A stretch of 64,000 bases of DNA from a bacterium (GTDB taxonomy: Bacteria; Bacillota; Clostridia; Lachnospirales; Lachnospiraceae): positions 52,790 through 116,789 of the forward strand of contig JAUNSO010000005.1 in NCBI GenBank assembly GCA_030539165.1. Reading direction: 5' to 3'. Positions 6,879 to 62,663 of this stretch are shown piece after piece (position 1 is the first letter of the stretch; every line of letters begins with the position of its first letter). The notes beneath the pieces are model-generated. The model saw only the letters and a program-made list of their open reading frames with translations. It had not been told where the DNA came from and ran no database searches. The position numbers and the translations under genes are program-made.

Positions 6879-8042
6879 CTATTTTTCGAGCTTGATGCTG
6901 CGCGATACACTGAGCACCATTCCGATCTCGATCAGCAGGAACACAACCGAGGAGCCTCCATAACTGATAAACGGAAGTGTAATACCTGTATTCGGAATCG
7001 AATTTGTTACAACCGCAATATTCAGTATGACCTGTATCGACATGTGTGCCATGGTTCCTACTACTAACAGTGCCCCAAATAAATCCTGGGCATTATTTGC
7101 GATGACCATGAATCTCCAGATCAGCAGCATAAACAGAATGATGACAGCAATGGCTCCGAACAGTCCCAGCTCTTCACAGATGATGGAAAAGATCATATCA
7201 TTCTGCGCCTCAGGCAGGAACCCCAGCTTCTGCATACTCTGTCCCAGCCCCTTCCCGAACAGTCCGCCTGAGCCGATCGCATAGAGTGCCTGCAGTGTCT
7301 GGAATCCGCTTCCGCTGGACTACGCTTCCGGATTCAGCCATGCCTTGATACGGGAAAATCGATACGACATATCCTCCGGGATGATCCCCTTGGCAATTGC
7401 CAGTACCATGACTGCGGATACAAAGATCACACACAATGCGCCCAACACATAGCCTTTGTAATCAGGACTTGCCACAAACAGCATCATCAGTACGATTCCA
7501 AAAATAATGATTGCGGAGCTCAGATTACTCGTGATGATCAGTATCTCTCCGGAAATAGGCACAGCCCAGAATACTGTGAATAAAAAGCCTTTTTTATTCC
7601 TGATTCTGGTTCCCATCTTACATACCAGTGACGCGAAAAATATAATCATGCCGACCTTTGCAACCTCTGCCGGCTGCAGTGACATACCGCCCAGATTCAG
7701 CCATCTTCTGGCTCCATTGGCGGAATAGCCTAACGGTGTCATAACCAGTGCGATCATAACTGCTGATACGATATAAGCCAGCATGGCAAAACGTTCCCAG
7801 ATATGATAATCTACACAGGCCACAATGACCATGACGATGACACCCAGTATCGTTGCCTTGATCTGCTTCTTTAAATAAAATGCAGAGTCTCCAAAATCAA
7901 GGTTTGCCTCATAGGAGCTCGTACTGTAGAGCATGACAAGACCAAAGCATATTAAAAAGATGACAATAAACAACAGTGTATAGTCAAAAAAGAATTTCTG
8001 TTTCGTTCGTTGTCTTCTGACTCCATCACGTCTTCCAGCCAT
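6879..8042 (-). pseudogene. ftsW: FtsW/SpoVE-type SEDS glycosyltransferase interrupted by in-frame amber codon
   Basis: SEDS-family lipid II polymerase paired with class B PBPs at the septum or in the spore. The reading frame is continuous over 387 codons except for one TAG at 7320-7322 (codon 241). Upstream it reads AWLNPEA, downstream SSGSGFQTLQALYAIGSGGL; this family normally has a tyrosine codon here (NPEAYSSG), so TAC/TAT to TAG is a one-base change. The part after the stop is intact through the final SEDS helices (NTGITLPFISYGGSS). No SD precedes a restart. The stop would remove the last four or so membrane helices. Options are a sequencing error, a real null with another SEDS gene elsewhere, or amber readthrough. 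TAG ends other genes here, so recoding of the whole code is unlikely. Confidence 0.85.
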
Positions 8043-10478: not shown

Positions 10479-12227
10479 TTATTCCTCTGTATTCTCGGGT
10501 ATTTCGACTTGTTTCTCGATCTGCAGATACGGAAGGATATTCTCAAACAGTTCCCTCACGAGCGGTGCCGCTATCGTTCCCCCATAATAAATTCCCTTTG
10601 GATGATTGATGATCAGCAATACAAGAACCTGTGGATCATCCGTCGGTGCAAAACCGATAAAGGAAGATATATATTTGCCGCTTCCCCTTGGCAGTGTCTG
10701 ACTCGTTGCCGTTTTTCCTCCGATCATATAGCCCGGTACTGCTGCATTTCTCCCGGTGCCCTCTGATACGACCTTTTCCAGCATATACTGCATTTTTTCA
10801 GAGGTTTCAGACGATATGATCCTGACATGATCCTGATATTGAAATTCCTTGACAGTCTTTTGCTCCTGATCGAGCACCTCCATTGCAAAATGTGGAGTCA
10901 CTCTGGTTCCACCATTTACGATGGAGCTGACTGTTGTTGCCAGCTGGATCGGTGTGATCTGGAAGGACTGTCCGAAGGATACGGTTGCCAGCTCTACTAG
11001 CCCGATATTTTCTTTTTGGTGCATGATCGTACCCGCTTCTCCGGGCAAATCGATTCCCGTTTTCTGCAGCAGTCCAAACTTTCTGAAATAATCATAAAAA
11101 TCATTGGCTCCGATTCTAAGTCCCACTGCGACAAAGACCGGATTGCAGGAATTCATGGTTGCCTGCAGAAACGTCTGTGAACCATGACCTGCAATTTTAT
11201 GGCACCGGATCCTGCGATCCTCCACCACTGTATAGCCGGGGCAGTGAAATCCGTCGTCCATAGTGACAACTCCCGCCTCAAAGCCTGCAGCTGCCGTGAT
11301 GATCTTAAACGTCGAGCCCGGCTCATAGGTATCATTCATGCAGCCGTTACGCCACATCTGGTTCAAAAGATCCTGCTGGTCATCCGCGCTCAGTCCCGCA
11401 GTTTCCGTCTGCAGCGCATAGGGTTCATTCAGATTGAACTCGGGAACATTGACCATCGACAGCACTTCCCCGTCAGATGGATTCATGACAATCACGCTCA
11501 CACTGTCTGCCTGCTTTTGTACCATGGCCTTCTCAGCGATCTGCTGTGCATACTTCTGTATATTGATATCCATGCTGATTCGCAGATCATTTCCATCTAC
11601 CGGTTCTATCCGATCCTCACCAGCCTCTGGCAGTTCCACACCTCTCGCATCTGTCAGAGCTAATATCTTGCCGTTTTTTCCTTTCAGATACTCCTCATAG
11701 ATGACTTCCAGTCCAATGATTCCCTGATTGTCACCGCCTGTAAAGCCCAGGACCTTTGAAGCGCATTCCTCATATGGATAGTAACGTTTATAATCCTCAT
11801 CCACCTTAACACCTGACAAATTACACAGGCGGACGGCATCTCCTGTTTTTTTATCTACATTTGCCTTGACCCGTTCAATCGAAGATACTTTTTCCACTCT
11901 TTTTCTGACTGACTCTTCTGAAAGATTAAGCAGCTGTGAAAGTGTTGCGATCACTTTCTCAGGCTCTCTGATCTGGCTATGTATGACGGACACTGTGCAA
12001 ACCGTTCGGTTCGCTGCAAGCACCTCTCCATTCCGGTCCAGTATCCTGCCGCGCGCCGCCTTGATATCCCGTTCCCGTTCATGCAGTGCCTGTGCCTCAC
12101 TCGTATAATAATCTGAGCAGCAGATCATCAGGTACGTCAGCCGTCCCGTCAGAATCAGCAGTGCAATGATACAGGCGCATGTATAGAATACGATCTTTTT
12201 TCTGTATGCTGTTTTATTCCTTAACAT
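10479..12227 (-). CDS. Class B penicillin-binding protein (FtsI/SpoVD-type transpeptidase) with KTA in place of KTG
   Basis: Septal or spore-cortex D,D-transpeptidase, 582 aa, one N-terminal membrane anchor (about residues 12-32), a dimerisation domain and a transpeptidase domain. The active serine motif is YEPGSTFK (around residue 303) and the second motif SCN is present. The third box reads GGKTATSQTLPRG (around residue 504), so the usual KTG is KTA. No PASTA domain follows, unlike SpoVD of Bacillus. It is the second of two tandem class B PBPs, probably one for division and one for sporulation; which is which cannot be decided from sequence alone. Confidence 0.9.
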   Translation of the reverse strand: MLRNKTAYRKKIVFYTCACIIALLILTGRLTYLMICCSDYYTSEAQALHERERDIKAARGRILDRNGEVLAANRTVCTVSVIHSQIREPEKVIATLSQLLNLSEESVRKRVEKVSSIERVKANVDKKTGDAVRLCNLSGVKVDEDYKRYYPYEECASKVLGFTGGDNQGIIGLEVIYEEYLKGKNGKILALTDARGVELPEAGEDRIEPVDGNDLRISMDINIQKYAQQIAEKAMVQKQADSVSVIVMNPSDGEVLSMVNVPEFNLNEPYALQTETAGLSADDQQDLLNQMWRNGCMNDTYEPGSTFKIITAAAGFEAGVVTMDDGFHCPGYTVVEDRRIRCHKIAGHGSQTFLQATMNSCNPVFVAVGLRIGANDFYDYFRKFGLLQKTGIDLPGEAGTIMHQKENIGLVELATVSFGQSFQITPIQLATTVSSIVNGGTRVTPHFAMEVLDQEQKTVKEFQYQDHVRIISSETSEKMQYMLEKVVSEGTGRNAAVPGYMIGGKTATSQTLPRGSGKYISSFIGFAPTDDPQVLVLLIINHPKGIYYGGTIAAPLVRELFENILPYLQIEKQVEIPENTEE

Positions 12228-56492: not shown

Positions 56493-58064
56493 TTACATCA
56501 ATGGCCCGAATATCTTTGATATGCTTCCTATGATCCTCTGTATGATCGGAATCCTGTCCATTTCCTTTTGTGTCATCAGAATACTCTTCTGTTTTGTTTT
56601 CTGAAAATCCTGTTCTATGTCATCAATGACGCTGTTCTTGTATGCATATACTGCACACTCGAAATGATGATACAGACTTCTGTAGTCAAGGTTGATAGAG
56701 CCTACAACCGCCTTTTCATCATCGCTTACAAATGACTTTGCATGCAGAAAGCCCGGTTCATATTCATAAACCCTCACGCCTGCAAGATTCAGCGTTTCAT
56801 AATAAGTCCTTGCGATATAGAACGGGATTGTTTTATCCGGTACATGCGGCAGGATCAATTCCACCTCCACACCTCGTTTTGCTGCAAAGCACAGTGCGGA
56901 GAGCATTTCATGATCCAGAATCAGATATGGGGTCATAATGTGCACATACCTGCGGGATTTATTCAACAGATCTCTGTAGATATCCTCTGCAACATCCTCA
57001 TCGTTGGTGGGTCCGTCTCCATAAGGTACGATATAGCCCTCTGCGTCCTTGATGGTATCCTGTGTCACATGGAAATACGCTTCATCTCCACCATGTCTTG
57101 GTTCTGATGCATTCCACATCTGCAGATACATAGCCGTCATGCTTTTGACTGCATCGCCCTCTATACGGATAGCTGTGTCCTTCCAGTGTCCGTACAGATT
57201 CTTTTCATTGATATATTCATCTGCCAGATTGATACCGCCTGTAAATCCTATTTTCCCATCTACGACAATGATCTTTCTGTGATCCCTGTTGTTCTGGTGC
57301 GTGGATAAAAACGGTCTGATTGGTGCATACATCTTGGCCTTCAGACCCATCCTGCGCAGACGCTTTGGATAGCTGTACGGCAGGCATGCAACCGTGCATG
57401 TTCCATCATACATAACGCGTACCTCTACACCGGCTTCTGCTTTTTTCTTCAGTATCTCCAGTACCGTATTCCACATAATCCCTTCAGAGATAATAAAAAA
57501 CTCAATAAATATAAACTTCTCTGCCCGCTCCAAAGCATCCTGAATCGCGACAAAAGCCTCTTCTCCGGATGCATAATACTTTGCAGCAGTATTCTGATAA
57601 GTCGGGAATTTTCCTGTATGCTCCAAATAGTATGATAAATCTGAGAAATGCGGTTCTTTGGTCTCCAGCTCATTGCGGATCTTAGGCTCAGTTTCCAGAT
57701 ATTTTTCTGTATCTGCACAGGTTCTTTGCATTTCCTTCTTTAACCCGATTGCTCCCGGATTGATCTTTACGAATAAATACAGTAAAACTCCAAACAAAGG
57801 AAAGACACACAAAGGAACCATCCATGCAAGCTTGAACTCCGGACGACCATTCATATTGATCATGTATACAACCAATACAGCACTTAATATGTTGAAACCT
57901 ATGATATAATATTCACGATATGGATTCAGATAATAAAAGACTCCGAAGAGAACCAATATTTGAATTAATAATAAAAGAAAGGTAATCATTGTCCGGCTGA
58001 AGAGAATACGGAATAACAATCTTCGGCTTTTATGTCTTACCTTTGCTGATATATGATCGCTCAT
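56493..58064 (-). CDS. cls: Cardiolipin synthase (phospholipase D family)
   Basis: Makes cardiolipin from two phosphatidylglycerols at the membrane, 523 aa. Three hydrophobic segments lie at the N-terminus (about residues 17-80). Two HKD motifs follow: NNRDHRKIIVVDGKIGFTGG and FLHAKSFVSDDEKAVVGSIN. It follows the STAS gene by 32 bp. Confidence 0.93.
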   Translation of the reverse strand: MSDHISAKVRHKSRRLLFRILFSRTMITFLLLLIQILVLFGVFYYLNPYREYYIIGFNILSAVLVVYMINMNGRPEFKLAWMVPLCVFPLFGVLLYLFVKINPGAIGLKKEMQRTCADTEKYLETEPKIRNELETKEPHFSDLSYYLEHTGKFPTYQNTAAKYYASGEEAFVAIQDALERAEKFIFIEFFIISEGIMWNTVLEILKKKAEAGVEVRVMYDGTCTVACLPYSYPKRLRRMGLKAKMYAPIRPFLSTHQNNRDHRKIIVVDGKIGFTGGINLADEYINEKNLYGHWKDTAIRIEGDAVKSMTAMYLQMWNASEPRHGGDEAYFHVTQDTIKDAEGYIVPYGDGPTNDEDVAEDIYRDLLNKSRRYVHIMTPYLILDHEMLSALCFAAKRGVEVELILPHVPDKTIPFYIARTYYETLNLAGVRVYEYEPGFLHAKSFVSDDEKAVVGSINLDYRSLYHHFECAVYAYKNSVIDDIEQDFQKTKQKSILMTQKEMDRIPIIQRIIGSISKIFGPLM

Positions 58065-58096
58065 GACTTCACCTGCCAGTCTACTCTATAGGGATA

Positions 58097-58402
58097 TCAG
58101 TCCTCTATTTCAAACAGTGGTATAAAACCGACCATCTCCATTGTATTTCTCACTGTCTCACTCAAATGTCTCAGGACGACTCCGCTGCCGATCTCATTGC
58201 CAATTTTTTTGGCGCGCAAAATCACGCCCAGACCAGAACTGCTGATATACGGAACATCCTTAAAATCAAATGTGATCTTTTTAGGGCTGTCCTTACGGCA
58301 CGCCTCTACCGCATCCATGAAAGCCTGAGCCACCGGCGTATCTATCGCCCCTGATAGTTTGATGATGGTCTCATAATTATGTGTCTCTTTCTCCACTGTC
58401 AT
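58097..58402 (-). CDS. STAS-domain protein (anti-sigma factor antagonist type)
   Basis: 101 aa single STAS domain. The phosphorylatable serine region reads DVPYISSSGLGVILRA, as in SpoIIAA/RsbV proteins. No partner kinase or sigma gene lies next to it. First gene of the operon with cardiolipin synthase; a partner-switching role is inference from the family. Confidence 0.85.
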   Translation of the reverse strand: MTVEKETHNYETIIKLSGAIDTPVAQAFMDAVEACRKDSPKKITFDFKDVPYISSSGLGVILRAKKIGNEIGSGVVLRHLSETVRNTMEMVGFIPLFEIED

Positions 58403-58454
58403 TTGTCACAAGCCTCCTTCTTCCCCAAGTAAGCTTAAAGTACTAACTCTGTAT

Positions 58455-58483
58455 ATTATACATGATAATTCACATCTTGTTAA
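58455..58483 (-). promoter_or_regulatory. Promoter of the STAS-cls-murE operon
   Basis: Minus-strand TTAACA (58478-58483), a 17-bp spacer and a perfect TATAAT (58455-58460), about 50 bp upstream of the STAS start codon, which has AAGGAGG. Confidence 0.7.
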
Positions 58484-58523
58484 GAGAAACTTTTTAGAGT
58501 AAAAACCAATTTATCAAAAGAGA

Positions 58524-58551
58524 AATCCCACGGATGTTTCACCGTGGGATT
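58524..58551 (-). terminator. Isolated strong hairpin, probable minus-strand terminator
   Basis: A perfect 10-bp stem AATCCCACGG/CCGTGGGATT with an 8-nt loop. On the minus strand it is followed by TCTCTTTTG. No minus-strand gene directly precedes it, so it may be the terminator of a host transcription unit now displaced by the prophage (inference). Confidence 0.5.
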
Positions 58552-58752
58552 AAATCTCTTATGAGGGGGGAGATAGTGAGTGCGTCTGAAAATCAAATTT
58601 TCTATTTTTCTACTTTGCAGTAAATACGCCATTTGCAAGGCTTTTATATTTCAAACCTGTTACTTTTTTGTTACTTGTTTGTCAGTTCTAACCCATATTT
58701 ATTTATCCGTATTTAATTTTTGTATAATTATCCATGCTCATTTAATCCACCA
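58552..58752. other. Non-coding stretch at host/prophage border
   Basis: Together with the flanking promoter and hairpin this makes a gene-free span of 398 bp (58403-58800). It is AT-rich and contains two GTTACTT direct repeats (58659-58678) and no credible ORF. This is where the prophage attachment site would be expected, but no core repeat can be identified because the other prophage end is outside the window. Confidence 0.4.
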
Positions 58753-58781
58753 TTGAGTATGCTCAACTTTCCAGATATAAT
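58753..58781 (+). promoter_or_regulatory. Promoter of the 54-aa gene
   Basis: TTGAGT (58753-58758), 17 bp, perfect TATAAT (58776-58781), 19 bp before the start codon, with GAGGTG as SD. Confidence 0.7.
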
Positions 58782-58800
58782 ACTAATGAGGTGATAATTC

Positions 58801-58965
58801 ATGAATAATCAGACATGCTCTCTTCCAGAAGATCTCCCCTGTCCTCATAGATCAGATAAGACATGCACCATAGTAAATACTAAGTGCGGATTCTACGAAG
58901 AAGCCAAGTCAGAAGTAAAGTATGAACGTAAAGAGAAGTGGTTTGAAAAATATTATAGAAAGTAA
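58801..58965 (+). CDS. Small cysteine-containing protein (54 aa)
   Basis: 54 aa, not recognised. The first 30 residues carry four cysteines and a histidine (C6, C14, H16, C22, C29), compatible with a small zinc-binding knuckle. The last 20 are Lys/Glu/Tyr-rich and likely helical (YERKEKWFEKYYRK). SD GAGGTG 8 nt upstream, its own promoter and a strong terminator directly after the stop make it a real, independently expressed gene. It faces the Cas7 operon and shares the terminator with it. It probably belongs to the prophage border. Confidence 0.7.
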   Translation: MNNQTCSLPEDLPCPHRSDKTCTIVNTKCGFYEEAKSEVKYERKEKWFEKYYRK

Positions 58966-58967
58966 AA

Positions 58968-58996
58968 AGAGCCGATTGATTATCTTTGTCGGCTCT
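58968..58996. terminator. Bidirectional terminator of the Cas7 operon and the 54-aa gene
   Basis: Stem AGAGCCGA/TCGGCTCT. On the plus side it is followed by CTGTATTTTATATTTTTTT, on the minus side by TTTTTAC. The sequence is nearly the same as the terminator at 61172-61198 on the other side of the Cas7 operon. Confidence 0.85.
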
Positions 58997-59003
58997 CTGT
59001 ATT

Positions 59004-59588
59004 TTATATTTTTTTGAATAACATTGTCTGTATTTTCTCCCAGTACTCTGTTAATCCCGGTTCATAATCCATTACATTAACTATATCCTGTATCTCTTTC
59101 TGATTTCCATATGATAAATAAAATGATTTATCCGATCCCGTTTTTTGCAGAGATTTAATTGTTGTCCCACATATTTGATTTAGCATACTGTTAATTCCGC
59201 CTAGCATCTTCTCTGTTCCATATACACGGATTCTGACTTTTTTATATTTCTTTCCCCTGTCTCCACTATATGCCGTTTGCCAATCAGCTCTTGAATGTAT
59301 TTCGAGATAGGCCTTTAGAAAATCAATACCGGCTGATTCCGGAATTGTCCTATCTGCGTCATTTCTTTTTCCGTATCCTATGTCACACAAACTCTTTATA
59401 TCAACGGAATACATTTTTAATACGTACTGCGGTTTTCCGTTTATTATTTGTCCGTATACCGTATTACAAGTTGATTGAGCTACCTGATCTAAAAAAAATT
59501 TGTTTTGATGTCGCACAACAATTGCATTCTCTGTACATGATGATGTTGCAAAAATAATACCAAGCTGGTAGTCATTAAATGTTATCAT
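59004..59588 (-). CDS. LAGLIDADG-fold protein with degenerate catalytic motifs
   Basis: 194 aa from the second of two adjacent ATG codons (59588), which has AGAGG 6 nt upstream; the first ATG (59591) is also possible. Two LAGLIDADG-like halves can be seen. In the first, YQLGIIFATSSCTENAIVVRHQ (split: YQLGIIFATSS, then ENAIVVRHQNKFFL) stands where LGLIFADGS is expected; in the second, FLKAYLEIHSRADW stands for FLRGFFDGDGS, followed by VRIRVYGTEKMLGGINSML. Both catalytic Asp positions are lost, so DNA or RNA binding without cleavage is likely (inference). It overlaps the cas7 end by 14 nt. Not a Cas5 or Cas8 by eye. Confidence 0.65.
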   Translation of the reverse strand: MITFNDYQLGIIFATSSCTENAIVVRHQNKFFLDQVAQSTCNTVYGQIINGKPQYVLKMYSVDIKSLCDIGYGKRNDADRTIPESAGIDFLKAYLEIHSRADWQTAYSGDRGKKYKKVRIRVYGTEKMLGGINSMLNQICGTTIKSLQKTGSDKSFYLSYGNQKEIQDIVNVMDYEPGLTEYWEKIQTMLFKKI

Positions 59589-60411
59589 CATAAACCTCTA
59601 ATTCTATTCCCGGAATAATATCTGGATTAACTCTATAATATGGAAATACATCAATAGGCTCAATATGCAGTAATCTATGTATATACGATGATGATTTTGT
59701 GCCTAAAGGACAATTATGTGTCCACCAATATAGAGCCAGAGACATACTCCCACCAGGGCGCGCTGCGCTTGCATCATTATCAAGCATATGTATGATAGAC
59801 TGTTTTAAATCATCTACATCATCATCACTAAATCCCGTTAGACCCGCGAGTTGTGGAAAAATAGAACCATACGACACATACACACCCTTATCCACTATAT
59901 ATTTTAATCCAAATGTACTTGAATCCTTTTTAAATGGATCGTCATCAATCAAATCATTGTTGATGCATTTGGTTATATTTACTGTGTGTATATCAATCAA
60001 ATCCAAGCTTCTGGCGGTCCCGACTGTCACAGGGCCGCGTACCCCTATAGATATACTCCCGGACTTTGTTTTTAATGCAAACACTTGTCCAAATGTCCTG
60101 ACATCTATCCACTTTGAGCATGCATGTTTTACAAACTCTTGATCATCTTTTTTCTTTATAAACTCTGCTAAAATATTGTCCGACTCGACTTTTTCTTTGA
60201 TTGATACTTTACCGATAGAATTACAATCTCCTATATTAAGTACATTCTGGCCATCAATGGCCATCTGATTTCTGATTTTGTGCTTTACACACACGTCTGT
60301 CATCAGACCATAACCATCATAATCCTGTCTCGGTCTGTTTCCTCCTGTCGGGTCTCCATTTGGGTTACATCTTTCTGCCGTCATAACAATTGCAAAATCA
60401 ATTTTATTCAT
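59575..60411 (-). CDS. Orphan type I-C Cas7 (Csd2) homologue
   Basis: 278 aa, full length for Csd2. The start is ATG 60411 (MNKIDFAIVMT) with GAGGGGG 6 nt upstream, overlapping the HTH gene stop by 8 nt. Family hallmarks are NPNGDPTGGNRPRQDYDGYG near the N-terminus, DVCVKHKIRN, WIDVRTFGQVFA, ISIGVRGPVTVG, ITKCIN and NDASAARPGGSMSLALYWW. In type I-C Cascade several Cas7 copies coat the crRNA. No cas3, cas5, cas8c, cas4, cas1, cas2 or repeat array is nearby. It is the third gene of a prophage operon with its own promoter and terminator. Confidence 0.9.
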   Translation of the reverse strand: MNKIDFAIVMTAERCNPNGDPTGGNRPRQDYDGYGLMTDVCVKHKIRNQMAIDGQNVLNIGDCNSIGKVSIKEKVESDNILAEFIKKKDDQEFVKHACSKWIDVRTFGQVFALKTKSGSISIGVRGPVTVGTARSLDLIDIHTVNITKCINNDLIDDDPFKKDSSTFGLKYIVDKGVYVSYGSIFPQLAGLTGFSDDDVDDLKQSIIHMLDNDASAARPGGSMSLALYWWTHNCPLGTKSSSYIHRLLHIEPIDVFPYYRVNPDIIPGIELEVYDDNI

Positions 60412-60745
60412 TTTCTTCCCCCTCAAATACCGTGTAAGCTACCAATGCAACAAGGTAGTCCGCTACTTTATTGTCCCCGCTTTCCCAGTCCTGCAGAGTA
60501 CGTCTGGGGATCCCGTATGTCTCATAAAAACTTATCTGAGACAATCCAAGCATACTCCGCAAGTACCTTATTGACAGTTTACTCAGATTATAAATTCTTG
60601 TCAAAATTTCTGCTACTTTACTGGCATCATCAGTTGGTGAATATTTATCCATCCAATCCTGCCATCCACGTTCTGCGATGTACATATCTACATCATTGTA
60701 ATCCTTTGCTTCATCATAAAACTTTTTAAACAAATCATACTTCAT
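60404..60745 (-). CDS. Helix-turn-helix protein, candidate operon regulator
   Basis: 113 aa. The N-terminal part (residues 1-60) is helical and acidic (YDEAKDYNDVDMYIAERGW). A HTH follows at about 65-100 (LGLSQISFYETYGIPRRTLQDWESG). SD GGAGGG upstream. It overlaps cas7. The most likely role is autoregulation through the palindrome in the operon promoter, in the manner of Aca proteins of anti-CRISPR loci; this is inference from layout. Confidence 0.82.
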   Translation of the reverse strand: MKYDLFKKFYDEAKDYNDVDMYIAERGWQDWMDKYSPTDDASKVAEILTRIYNLSKLSIRYLRSMLGLSQISFYETYGIPRRTLQDWESGDNKVADYLVALVAYTVFEGEENE

Positions 60746-60767
60746 AGTTTTCCCTCCATTGTTAATC

Positions 60768-60787
60768 CTCCCCGGTTTCCCGGGGAG
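60768..60787 (-). other. GC-rich stem-loop between operon genes
   Basis: A perfect 8-bp stem CTCCCCGG/CCGGGGAG with a 4-nt loop, in the gap between the 70-aa gene and the HTH gene, without a T run. It could stabilise the upstream mRNA, act as a weak terminator or be a processing site that sets different expression of the first gene. Confidence 0.55.
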
Positions 60788-60798
60788 CTGATTATTAT

Positions 60799-61011
60799 CT
60801 ACATGTTCTGATATTCAGTTGTTTTCTGTACCATTTCTTCATACTTCTTTATTGTATCTTCTTTTGATACTCTGTGACTTACAACTTTATCATGATAATC
60901 CTGATCTGCGAATTTTTCAGCTTCATTTTTATCTTCGAAGCAGGCTGTTAAATCTCTGTCTACTCCCCATGTTCTGAAGTTAACTGTATAAAATGTTCTT
61001 GATGTTGTCAT
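60799..61011 (-). CDS. Small prophage protein (70 aa), first gene of the Cas7 operon
   Basis: 70 aa, not recognised. Start ATG with AGGAAG 7 nt upstream. Short beta-like N-terminus (RTFYTVNFRTWGVDRD) and a charged helical C-terminal half. No signal peptide or membrane segment. Being the promoter-proximal gene followed by an HTH gene, it is in the position of a small anti-CRISPR or toxin/antitoxin-like effector, but nothing in the sequence proves a function. Confidence 0.65.
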   Translation of the reverse strand: MTTSRTFYTVNFRTWGVDRDLTACFEDKNEAEKFADQDYHDKVVSHRVSKEDTIKKYEEMVQKTTEYQNM

Positions 61012-61025
61012 ATTTTTCTTCCTGT

Positions 61026-61093
61026 GCTACAATGTAGCTACCTTTCTTATTGATTGGTGCCGTCCTGGTTAACTTAGCGGTTGTTGGGACGGC
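61026..61093 (-). other. Structured 5' leader of the Cas7 operon
   Basis: Two stem-loops lie between the promoter and the first gene: GCCGTCC/GGACGGC (61059-61065 with 61087-61093, 21-nt loop) and GCTAC/GTAGC (61026-61030 with 61034-61038) directly before the SD. On the minus strand neither has a T run. Confidence 0.45.
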
Positions 61094-61112
61094 TTTGTTA
61101 TTTGTTAATATA

Positions 61113-61141
61113 AACATAGCACGTTATACGTGCTATGTCAA
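61113..61141 (-). promoter_or_regulatory. Promoter with embedded perfect palindrome (Cas7 operon)
   Basis: Minus-strand TTGACA (61136-61141), a 17-bp spacer and TATGTT (61113-61118) with an extended TG. A perfect 11-3-11 palindrome, ACATAGCACGT-TAT-ACGTGCTATGT on the plus strand (61114-61138), fills the spacer and touches both core elements. A repressor bound here would exclude RNA polymerase. Confidence 0.88.
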
Positions 61142-61171
61142 CACTTATTTTAAAATTATTTAAGAAAAAAA

Positions 61172-61198
61172 GAGCCGAAGGATTATCTCCATCGGCTC
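61172..61198 (-). terminator. Terminator after the endolysin gene
   Basis: Stem GAGCCGA/TCGGCTC, followed on the minus strand by TTTTTTTCTT. It ends the prophage late/lysis transcript and separates it from the Cas7 operon promoter. Near-duplicate of 58968-58996. Confidence 0.85.
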
Positions 61199-61262
61199 CC
61201 TGTATCTCGTAATAAATCATATATTTCCACGTCACTATTAACTATATCTATCCATTATGTGA

Positions 61263-61985
61263 CTACATATCACAGATAAGTGCTCTCCGTGTGATCTGTC
61301 CACAAATTCTATCCGGCTCAATTTTTGCTGATTGCTGAAATGCTTCCAGAGCTGCATCCGTTATGGCTTCAAATGATCCATGTACATTCACCGGAATATT
61401 GTAGCCGGCTTCGATCAATTCAAACTGCAACCATCTGACATCTTGTCCCACCATACCAATATACAGATTTCGTACCGGTTCAATATATGGGTTCTTGGTC
61501 TTCCACGTCCCGGGCACTTTCTTTGTAATGTCATATGACAGTTCTCTGAATGTCAATCCATACTGCCACTTGGTTGCGGCAACCTTTTGCTTGACGGTTC
61601 CATAATTAATACCCTTTGCCTCAACGTCAAAAAGCACTGATCCGTTACCGAGATAAACACCTACATGACCAGATTTCCACAGCGCCGTTCCTGGAGCCAT
61701 GTCAGCTATAGCTGATATTGGTAGCCGCGTATATGCCGCAGAATACATCTGCGCGGATCCAATTACCTTACCGGTGTACGCGCTGATCAGCCCACTGCAA
61801 TCTGTCGCAATCTGCCCGATGTACCTGCAGGCCTTTGTTATGTACGCTGCAGTATAGATGTTTGGATACGCTTTGGCCAGACGTTTGATCTTTTCCTCTG
61901 TCACGATCTCCATCTTAAATCCATATACATACGGTGTACCTATCTTACTGACTGCATAATCAGCCAATCCTTGCCCTGTAAGCAT
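61263..61985 (-). CDS. Phage endolysin: NlpC/P60 peptidase plus peptidoglycan-binding domain
   Basis: 240 aa from ATG 61985 (MLTGQGLADYAVSK), 1 nt after the holin stop, with AGGTGG upstream. The NlpC/P60 domain (about residues 1-150) has the catalytic Cys in ATDCSGLI and His in SGHVGVYLGNG. A C-terminal PG_binding_1 domain (about 175-238) contains GQDVRWLQFELIEAGY and FEAITDAALEAFQ. No signal peptide, so export relies on the holin. It cleaves the peptide stem of peptidoglycan at lysis. Confidence 0.9.
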   Translation of the reverse strand: MLTGQGLADYAVSKIGTPYVYGFKMEIVTEEKIKRLAKAYPNIYTAAYITKACRYIGQIATDCSGLISAYTGKVIGSAQMYSAAYTRLPISAIADMAPGTALWKSGHVGVYLGNGSVLFDVEAKGINYGTVKQKVAATKWQYGLTFRELSYDITKKVPGTWKTKNPYIEPVRNLYIGMVGQDVRWLQFELIEAGYNIPVNVHGSFEAITDAALEAFQQSAKIEPDRICGQITRRALICDM

Positions 61986-61986
61986 A

Positions 61987-62298
61987 TTAATCACCACCTG
62001 TCTTGCTGATCTGTGTGATCAGCTGCATAACCTTGTCGTATCCAACCATAGCTCCTAACCAGTTACCTGCAGCCAGCAAAAACATCATAATAATATTTAA
62101 TGCTGAAAACGGAATATCCAGTAACAGATATGCCACAGCAGATACTGATAATCCGATTACAATTGCTACTACCAGTGCAATCATATTTGAGGAGTATGTC
62201 AGCTGCTTATCCTCAAATACCTTTTTTAATGCCTGCGTCATCATAGCGGTGATTGCTGCACAAATCGTTAATAATCCTAAAAATAATTCTAGTGTCAT
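61987..62298 (-). CDS. Phage holin
   Basis: 103 aa with three hydrophobic segments (about residues 5-22, 38-60, 65-85) and a short polar C-terminus. It sits directly ahead of the endolysin gene, its start overlapping the stop of the gene before (TAATG). Holin identity is from topology and position. Confidence 0.8.
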   Translation of the reverse strand: MTLELFLGLLTICAAITAMMTQALKKVFEDKQLTYSSNMIALVVAIVIGLSVSAVAYLLLDIPFSALNIIMMFLLAAGNWLGAMVGYDKVMQLITQISKTGGD

Positions 62299-62663
62299 TA
62301 CACTACCTCCTGTTCTAGGGCTTCAGCCCTGTTGACGTCCTTAAACTTCCTACAGTTTTCTACTTTTGACTTCCACACAATAAATCCTGTGTGAATACCT
62401 AATTCCGTGAATGCAGCAGTATCTACCGTACAGATTGGTGATAGATCTGTGATTCCTAACTTCCCTGAGAAGATCACAATCGTAAATGTCGCAATTGTCG
62501 TTGCCGTCACAAAGATCACATTGTACAGATACAGCTTGTCCATCTTGCCCCATTTCTTAGGCCGATATAAATCAAGTCTGGATTTTCCTGTAAAATACAT
62601 ATCAGCCGCCCACATTAGGAGTGCACCGGTGCACATCCCAATCACGAAAATTATCACGCTCAT
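62298..62663 (-). CDS. Prophage membrane protein of the lysis region
   Basis: 121 aa with two hydrophobic segments (about residues 2-20 and 47-68) and a charged C-terminal tail. Not recognised. Its ATG overlaps the upstream stop (ATGA) and its stop overlaps the holin start, so it is translated as part of the lysis cassette; a second holin or holin-antagonist is possible. Confidence 0.7.
   Translation of the reverse strand: MSVIIFVIGMCTGALLMWAADMYFTGKSRLDLYRPKKWGKMDKLYLYNVIFVTATTIATFTIVIFSGKLGITDLSPICTVDTAAFTELGIHTGFIVWKSKVENCRKFKDVNRAEALEQEVV

What the first reader, a model, noticed from the sequence alone, without database searches (positions are those of the whole stretch)
59004..61141. 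Orphan type I-C Cas7 operon in a prophage moron position
A full-length Csd2/Cas7 lies in a four-gene operon (70-aa protein, HTH protein, Cas7, LAGLIDADG-fold protein) just beyond the endolysin of a prophage, with its own promoter and terminators. No effector partner, adaptation gene or array is present. Known: Cas7 alone coats crRNA in type I-C Cascade. Inference: the phage Cas7 may act as a decoy that poisons the host's I-C Cascade, steal crRNAs, or with its two partners form a minimal RNA-guided or RNA-binding defence or superinfection device.
Basis: partly seen in the sequence, partly recalled or inferred. Interest (0 to 1): 0.93.

Follow-up and report, generated by a model that had tools for sequence, protein, structure and literature searches.

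The report
Prophage's lone Cas7, likely CRISPR saboteur
A prophage in an unnamed bacterium carries one complete CRISPR protein gene, cas7, in a genome where no other part of that CRISPR type was found, in a small operon laid out like known anti-CRISPR operons; it is likely a captured CRISPR part that would jam another cell's CRISPR complex, though no activity has been tested.

Summary
The minus-strand operon at 59004-61141 encodes a 70-aa protein, an HTH protein, a full-length type I-C Cas7 (TIGR02589, 242 bits, cut-off 182) and a LAGLIDADG-fold protein, between a phage endolysin and host genes. The window's draft genome has one Cas7 and no match to Cas1, Cas5, Cas8c or an I-C repeat. New here: (1) the promoter holds an 11-nt perfect inverted repeat between -35 and -10, as in acr-aca operons; (2) the order promoter-operator / small ORF / HTH / lone Cas7 recurs in another prophage contig (L008); (3) in L008 and two close kin a solitary type I-C repeat, with a promoter-like site, lies just past cas7, as known for RNA anti-CRISPRs; the window has none. 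Cas7 dN/dS among these kin is 0.13-0.20. In contrast, 133 of 133 other Cas7 locus entries fetched from genomes sit beside other cas genes. Best reading: a Cas7-derived type I-C anti-CRISPR that poisons Cascade or holds guide RNA. Cas-derived anti-CRISPRs are known (AcrIB3, a Cas5 mimic), so this is a new variant, not a new kind. Activity is untested.

The parts
61113..61141 (-). sigma-70-like promoter TTGACA-17-TATGTT of the operon
   Evidence: 10 of 12 consensus positions, TG before the second hexamer
61114..61138 (.). predicted operator: 11-nt perfect inverted repeat ACATAGCACGT/ACGTGCTATGT between -35 and -10
   Evidence: the only one of 22 promoter-like sites in the 64-kb window with such a repeat
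60799..61011 (-). 70-aa small leader protein; L008 and several other HTH cassettes have a small ORF in the same place, with little sequence in common
60768..60787 (.). 8-bp GC hairpin between the 70-aa and HTH genes; not a convincing CRISPR repeat
60404..60745 (-). 113-aa HTH protein (phrog_25567 family), predicted Aca-like autoregulator
   Evidence: HTH_3 21.8 bits, just under the cut-off of 23; phrog_25567 E 1.8e-32; homologues
59575..60411 (-). solitary type I-C Cas7 (Csd2), 278 aa
59004..59591 (-). 195-aa LAGLIDADG-fold protein, predicted to lack catalytic acids
58969..58998 (-). terminator-like hairpin AGAGCCGA...TCGGCTCT followed by T-run, end of operon
   Evidence: sequence (not listed by the scanner)
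61163..61207 (-). terminator-like hairpin between endolysin and operon; similar in sequence to the downstream one
61263..61997 (-). phage endolysin (PG_binding_1; NlpC/P60 just under cut-off), upstream neighbour

Best explanation
A prophage carries a complete but solitary type I-C cas7 gene in an operon predicted to be autoregulated like an anti-CRISPR operon, and its protein most likely acts as an anti-CRISPR that would jam type I-C Cascade. Proposed mechanism: (1) after infection or induction the operon is transcribed from a strong promoter until the HTH protein binds the inverted repeat between -35 and -10 and shuts it off (inferred from anatomy). (2) The phage Cas7, which is predicted to keep the whole Cas7 fold, binds crRNA or joins the host's Cas7 filament (inferred). 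(3) Because it comes alone and has diverged from Cas7 of complete systems, the complexes it joins would be defective, or the guide RNA would be locked up without Cas5/Cas8 (inferred). In a relative prophage group a solitary repeat RNA encoded next to cas7 would add a decoy RNA (repeat shown, function inferred). The LAGLIDADG-fold protein is treated as separate cargo or a DNA-binding accessory (inferred).
For: Full I-C Cas7 by profile and predicted fold. No partner genes or I-C repeats found in the genome. In viral contigs a pattern that allowed both Cys and Ala before NPNGDP found 8 Cas7 loci: 5 of 8 had no other cas match in the DNA held (three of the five are close kin) and 3 of 8 did. Cassette order and operator position shared with L008. 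A strong promoter match with an inverted repeat of 9 nt or more inside came up in 1 of 626 promoter matches of random sequence. PMC9410906 (abstract and passages) predicts such a repeat within the core promoter for each Aca family. Solitary I-C repeat in 3 of 3 Cas7-bearing contigs of the L006-L008 group, 0 in 30 Mb of random sequence, each preceded by a promoter-like site. dN/dS 0.13-0.20 among the three. Precedent: AcrIB3 is a Cas5 mimic that enters Cascade (PMC13131331 section 12); a Racr forms an aberrant Cas6f-Cas7f complex (PMC10651486 passages).
Against: No activity shown. The window's own genome shows no I-C system to inhibit and no solitary repeat. The Cas7 fold has no missing part that would explain a dominant-negative effect, unlike AcrIB3. 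Of 1,736 spacers from the fetched I-C arrays, the part of the output that was shown has only short matches to these phages (best to the window's phage 18 nt, output cut). The HTH family also governs cassettes without Cas7, and of 10 other HTH-bearing loci scanned with the strict operator rule only 3 (L008, L185, L186) had the operator. In L007 the HTH frame is broken.
Confidence: 0.5

Rival explanations
1. The lone Cas7 is an RNA-binding protein that coats a phage or host small RNA (a phage-made ribonucleoprotein) and serves gene regulation or superinfection exclusion rather than CRISPR inhibition.
For: Cas7 fold predicted complete; relatives encode a structured RNA-like element with a promoter-like site and a following GC hairpin beside cas7.
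Against: That element is a type I-C repeat mimic, which points to CRISPR; none was found near the window's operon.
Confidence: 0.18
2. Defence device: the operon protects the lysogen from other phages, with Cas7 and the LAGLIDADG-fold protein as partners.
For: Moron position; overlapping genes that suggest coupled translation.
Against: The LAGLIDADG partner was not found beside any of the 5 lone-Cas7 viral loci, though L006 and L011 lack one flank; it was found in 1 of 392 genomes of the order, the window's own; five metagenomic homologues exist with unknown context; its catalytic acids are replaced (motif recalled); PADLOC matched nothing but Cas7 models.
Confidence: 0.12
3. Passenger or relic: a piece of an old I-C locus caught by a phage, not under selection.
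For: Found in one genome only; Cas7 matches listed in the other family genomes are 48% identical at most, and those fetched lie in ordinary loci.
Against: Intact frame; 66 of 87 positions that are at least 95% identical in 78 Cas7 of complete loci are retained; own promoter and operator; recurrence in other prophages with dN/dS 0.13-0.20.
Confidence: 0.1
4. The Cas7 complements a split I-C system elsewhere (in the missing 5% of the genome or on another element).
For: Draft genome, 124 contigs.
Against: No Cas1, Cas5, Cas8c or I-C repeat found in 3.39 Mb; the other lone copies lie in viral contigs too.
Confidence: 0.04

Closest known systems
Cas-derived anti-CRISPRs: AcrIB3 (Cas5 mimic), AcrIB4 (Cas8b C-terminal homologue), AcrVIA2 (Cas3 helicase homologue), as told in PMC13131331 section 12; the source study (Nature 2024, recalled) is not in the library
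   Same: A single homologue of a CRISPR subunit encoded on a mobile element without the rest of the system
   Different: Here the subunit is Cas7 of type I-C, full length, in an operon with an HTH regulator; no inhibition shown; no structural deletion like the missing hook of AcrIB3
RNA anti-CRISPRs (Racr; RacrIF1, RacrIC1; PMC10651486, passages)
   Same: Phage-borne solitary repeat, often near anti-CRISPR genes; RacrIF1 binds Cas6f and Cas7f
   Different: In the window no solitary repeat was found; in L006-L008 the repeat lies beside a phage Cas7, a pairing not named in the passages read
acr-aca operons (PMC9410906, abstract and passages)
   Same: HTH gene in operon, inverted repeat within the core promoter, mobile element
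   Different: The HTH family (phrog_25567) is not shown to be a known Aca, and it precedes the cargo; no known acr identified
Type I-C Cas7/Csd2 of complete systems (7kha, 8g9s, 9jhb)
   Same: Sequence family and predicted fold
   Different: No Cas5, Cas8, adaptation genes or array found; falls outside the groups of Cas7 from complete loci
I-C Cascade genes on a very large viral contig (L010, 392 kb)
   Same: Cas7 on a viral contig
   Different: L010 also has Cas3, Cas5 and Cas8 matches

Membership tests
Cas7/Csd2 protein family (TIGR02589) | Score above the curated cut-off | tested here: met
   242.4 bits against 182.25
Cas7/Csd2 protein family (TIGR02589) | Cas7 fold | tested here: met
[quoted passage not shown]
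   none found in 3.39 Mb, genome 95% complete; Cas3 not searched for
Cas-derived anti-CRISPR | Lone homologue of a CRISPR subunit on a mobile element | tested here: met
Cas-derived anti-CRISPR | Inhibits CRISPR interference | not testable with these tools
   needs a plasmid or phage interference assay
Cas-derived anti-CRISPR | Lost interface that makes the complex defective (as the hook in AcrIB3) | tested here: inconclusive
   no fold element missing; of 87 positions at least 95% identical in 78 Cas7 of complete loci, 21 differ or are gapped in the window copy, not mapped to interfaces
acr-aca operon | HTH gene in the operon and inverted repeat within the core promoter | tested here: met
   pattern told in PMC9410906
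acr-aca operon | HTH protein belongs to a described Aca family | not tested
   no Aca models among the libraries searched
Racr (solitary repeat RNA) | Type I-C repeat hairpin plus handle near the operon | tested here: not met
   window: none; L006, L007, L008: one each; L167, found by the repeat itself, also one
LAGLIDADG homing endonuclease (195-aa partner) | LAGLIDADG fold | tested here: met
   predicted model, 2dch E 1.8e-8, TM 0.67/0.65
LAGLIDADG homing endonuclease (195-aa partner) | Acidic catalytic residue at the end of each motif helix | tested here: not met
   T or another non-acid in the first helix and an invariant H98 in the second, read off alignment A3 of 6 rows; motif register recalled

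The most novel reading that the evidence does not exclude
Temperate phages carry a separate lineage of lone I-C-type Cas7 proteins as swappable moron cargo, and some pair it with their own solitary repeat RNA, so that the phage brings both protein and RNA of a decoy Cascade that assembles on contact with the host's I-C system and disables it: a two-part, phage-made ribonucleoprotein anti-CRISPR.
Probability: 0.25. Interest if true: 0.85.

Novelty: new variant of a known kind. Interest (0 to 1): 0.64.

Why it matters
A 2024 review calls it an enigma that viruses broadly recruited CRISPR repeat RNA as inhibitors while Cas proteins apparently were not (PMC11656645 section 5). Prophages that keep a lone Cas7 in an acr-aca-like cassette, in one group beside a solitary I-C repeat and under purifying selection, make that question directly testable. 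It would add the most abundant Cascade subunit to the short list of Cas-derived anti-CRISPR candidates, and it hints at a large pool: 76 of the 120 listed protein hits, the window's own included, share the residue found in the lone I-C-type copies here. The genomic context of those hits is unknown, and the residue also occurs in I-B-type loci.

Tried and rejected
Solitary repeat in the window: the hairpin at 60768-60787 followed by GGATTAACAA and the palindrome at 58520-58556 were considered; neither meets the repeat rule, and the one near-handle in the window, at 58938, has no stem. The rule was fixed after the L008 repeat had been seen. Rfam gave nothing at 58000-62500 up to E 1 and nothing at gathering scores in the whole window. 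For L008, Rfam CRISPR-DR9 matches the repeat at only 20.5 bits (E 0.26), below its gathering score of 45. The random-sequence count inside one search used too high a threshold and is not used; one search replaced it.

Cys before NPNGDP as a marker of lone Cas7: among I-C-type loci 16 matches with Cys (6 distinct places, duplicates from repeated fetches) had no other cas match, and 138 matches with Ala, Gly or Ser had one in 135 cases, the 3 others (L143, L153, L155) in longer stretches. But a pattern search of 391 genomes of the class found 5 with it, the window's and 4 others, and those 4 lie in loci that read as type I-B: Cas3 matches beside 3 of 4, neighbours of the fourth (L176) judged by reading only. 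So the residue is a lineage mark, not a diagnostic.

One origin of the Cys group: not rejected (p-AU 0.305) and not shown; the best tree needs two changes. One row was dropped for lack of sequence (A_L144). The first tree joined L126 to long branches.

The four unannotated 'phage' records (L002-L005) all have other cas matches. Of 64 plasmid records, 40 were listed: 36 annotated as I-C Cas7, 1 as I-B Cas7, 3 without annotation under the match; the one opened was a multi-gene I-C locus.

L008-type Cas7 was not found in 397 family genomes at E 1e-85, an empty answer without a positive control, so the host and its CRISPR status remain unknown. Spacers from the fetched arrays against the phages: only short matches in the shown part. 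Contexts of P0002-P0056 could not be fetched. The partner protein was not found in viral contigs.

Viral-contig searches with the window's Cas7 alone gave none, and with L126's Cas7 only itself.

Full report
What is there. The minus strand of 59004-61141 holds four genes behind one promoter: a 70-aa protein, a 113-aa HTH protein, a 278-aa Cas7 and a 195-aa protein. The last three reading frames overlap by 8 and 17 nt, which suggests coupled translation. Upstream lies a phage endolysin and further small genes, three of them with PHROG matches, to the end of the contig; downstream lie STAS and phospholipase-D-like genes taken as host. The contig ends where the window ends, so most of the prophage is not in view.

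It is alone. The genome (3.39 Mb, 124 contigs, 95% complete) holds one PF05107 match and none for Cas1, Cas5 or Csd1 at E 0.001; Cas3 was not searched for. The I-C handle with at most one mismatch occurs 24 times in scattered places against 10 for the reversed control; 0 of the 24 have a stem of 5 or more.

Controls. tblastn with the cas genes of an I-C locus (L003, plus a Cas8 of L002) was run over the Cas7 loci fetched (recounted in 127). Of the 80 best genome loci (a capped list), 80 had another cas match. Of 29 further family loci fetched (own genome left out; matches without a fetched locus were not looked at), 29 did. Of 24 order loci fetched (own left out), 22 did in the short stretch and the other 2 (L143, L153) in longer stretches. 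That is 133 of 133 entries, some from the same genomes. Of 8 viral-contig Cas7 loci, 3 (L009, L010, L012) had other cas matches and 5 (L006, L007, L008, L011, L013) had none. L006, L007 and L008 are close kin. L006 and L011 begin close to the gene, so one flank is missing there; L013 is GC-rich and distant, so its cas neighbours could be missed.

Relatives with the same cassette. L008 (13 kb held of a 38-kb viral contig, IMG 2585427815) reads: promoter, 84-aa small ORF, HTH protein 33% identical to the window's, Cas7 45% identical, then the endolysin on the other strand. L007 is a near relative, but the first half of its HTH frame is broken. The HTH proteins of the window and L008 match phrog_25567. 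The same HTH family occurs in streptococcal and other phage contigs, in several cases just past the lysin, in others near an integrase-like gene, often behind a small ORF, with other cargo such as cysteine-rich proteins of 166-406 aa (cargo judged by reading). Cas7 therefore looks like one swappable cargo of a moron cassette. The window's LAGLIDADG-fold protein was not found in the other loci.

Regulation. The window's promoter TTGACATAGCACGTATAACGTGCTATGTT and that of L008, TTGACATACCACCCATTGAGTGGTATAAT, both carry an inverted repeat between -35 and -10. Under one rule (inverted repeat of 9 nt or more inside a strong promoter) the window has 1 of 22 promoter-like sites, the operon's own; L008 1 of 7; L186 1 of 2; L185 2 of 4; and L180, L181, L182, L183, L184, L129, L130 and L126 none. 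In 10 Mb of random sequence 1 of 626 qualified. With a looser rule L182 also shows a 7-nt repeat. The Aca survey PMC9410906 (abstract and passages) predicts an inverted repeat within the core promoter for each Aca family. That the HTH protein binds here is inferred.

Solitary repeat in relatives. L006, L007 and L008 carry one type I-C repeat-like hairpin plus handle, GTTCGCCCGTTTCGGGCGTGGATTGAAAA, about 150 bp past the cas7 stop on the opposite strand. A pattern search with part of it found one more contig, L167, which begins just after that stop. A fixed rule (handle with at most one mismatch after a perfect stem of 5 or more), set after the first sight of the repeat, finds it in 3 of 3 Cas7-bearing contigs of this group, recognises 48 of 59 array-bearing loci, and gives 0 hits in 30 Mb of random sequence; the window, L126 and L013 have none. 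A near-consensus promoter (11 of 12, with TG) precedes it in 3 of 3, and a GC hairpin follows in L008 (fold). Rfam's best CRISPR match there is below its gathering score. Racrs are phage solitary repeats that inhibit CRISPR, including an I-C one (PMC10651486, passages). The surrounding DNA of these contigs is very similar, so they count as one lineage.

Selection and phylogeny. dN/dS of cas7 among L006-L008 is 0.13, 0.14 and 0.20 (Nei-Gojobori in my script). In a tree of 58 rows, Cas7 of complete loci with Ala before NPNGDP form one supported group (97/99) and those with Gly another (100/100); the window, the lone copies and the metagenomic relatives with Cys lie outside, with the window in a supported Cys-only set of 23 rows (95/92). 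That all Cys rows are one clade is neither shown nor rejected (p-AU 0.305). The Cys also occurs in four I-B-like loci.

Mechanism. The most likely role is a Cas7-derived anti-CRISPR against type I-C: the phage subunit would enter Cascade or hold crRNA without Cas5/Cas8. Shown: complete cas7, no partners found, mobile context, inverted repeat in promoter, recurrence, and a repeat mimic in relatives. Inferred: repression by HTH, entry into Cascade or RNA sequestration, and inhibition. Against: no I-C system found in this genome, no broken interface found, no spacer evidence.

What is known. Cas-derived anti-CRISPRs exist: AcrIB3 replaces Cas5 in Cascade, AcrIB4 resembles part of Cas8b, and AcrVIA2 derives from a Cas3 helicase (PMC13131331 section 12, read whole). 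The primary study, recalled as Nature 2024 and recalled to have reported orphan cas genes in viral databases, is not held, so whether it lists Cas7 could not be checked. Searches of the held library for orphan, solitary, lone or phage-encoded Cas7 and related terms showed no title on a phage lone I-C Cas7 in their listings; most of the listed papers were not opened. A late-2024 review states that it is an enigma why Cas proteins were apparently not broadly recruited as inhibitors (PMC11656645 section 5, read whole).

Verdict. Observation confirmed; interpretation partly supported; a new variant of a known kind, with a testable and bolder possibility (phage Cas7 plus repeat RNA as a two-part decoy) in its relatives.

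Noticed in passing
L008 about 11008-11055 (minus), L006 about 1134-1160, L007 about 7289-7315, L167 151-174: Solitary type I-C repeat-like hairpin with handle, flanked by an 11-nt inverted repeat and followed by a GC hairpin, just past a lone cas7 in viral contigs.
   Followed up: yes
window 58969-58998 and 61163-61207: The two terminator-like hairpins that flank the operon are similar in sequence, as if the cassette were bounded by duplicated terminators.
   Followed up: no
window 58520-58556: Long inverted repeat (GAGAAATCCCACGG...CCGTGGGATTAAATCTC) near the presumed phage-host boundary, possibly a terminator or part of the attachment region.
   Followed up: no
window 58801-58965 (plus): 54-aa ORF rich in cysteine, convergent to the operon; no convincing family match.
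   Followed up: no
L181, L182, L183, L186, L187, L129, L130: The phrog_25567 HTH family sits in moron-like cassettes, several of them behind phage lysins, with varied cargo (cysteine-rich proteins; one that reads like a helicase in L183); a possible guide to unknown anti-defence genes.
   Followed up: partly
L013:7254-7979: Another Cas7 without recognisable cas neighbours in a GC-rich 104-kb viral contig; neighbours look unlike CRISPR genes.
   Followed up: partly
L126:1-1271: Lone Cas7 behind a 140-aa phrog_14350 protein next to an endolysin gene of a third prophage contig, convergent with it.
   Followed up: partly
P0002-P0056: Dozens of metagenomic Cas7 proteins mostly of the same Cys type, with unknown genomic context; P0006 alone stands for 97 contigs.
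   Followed up: partly
L007:5923-6246: The HTH gene in front of the lone cas7 is broken in L007 while cas7 itself is intact.
   Followed up: partly
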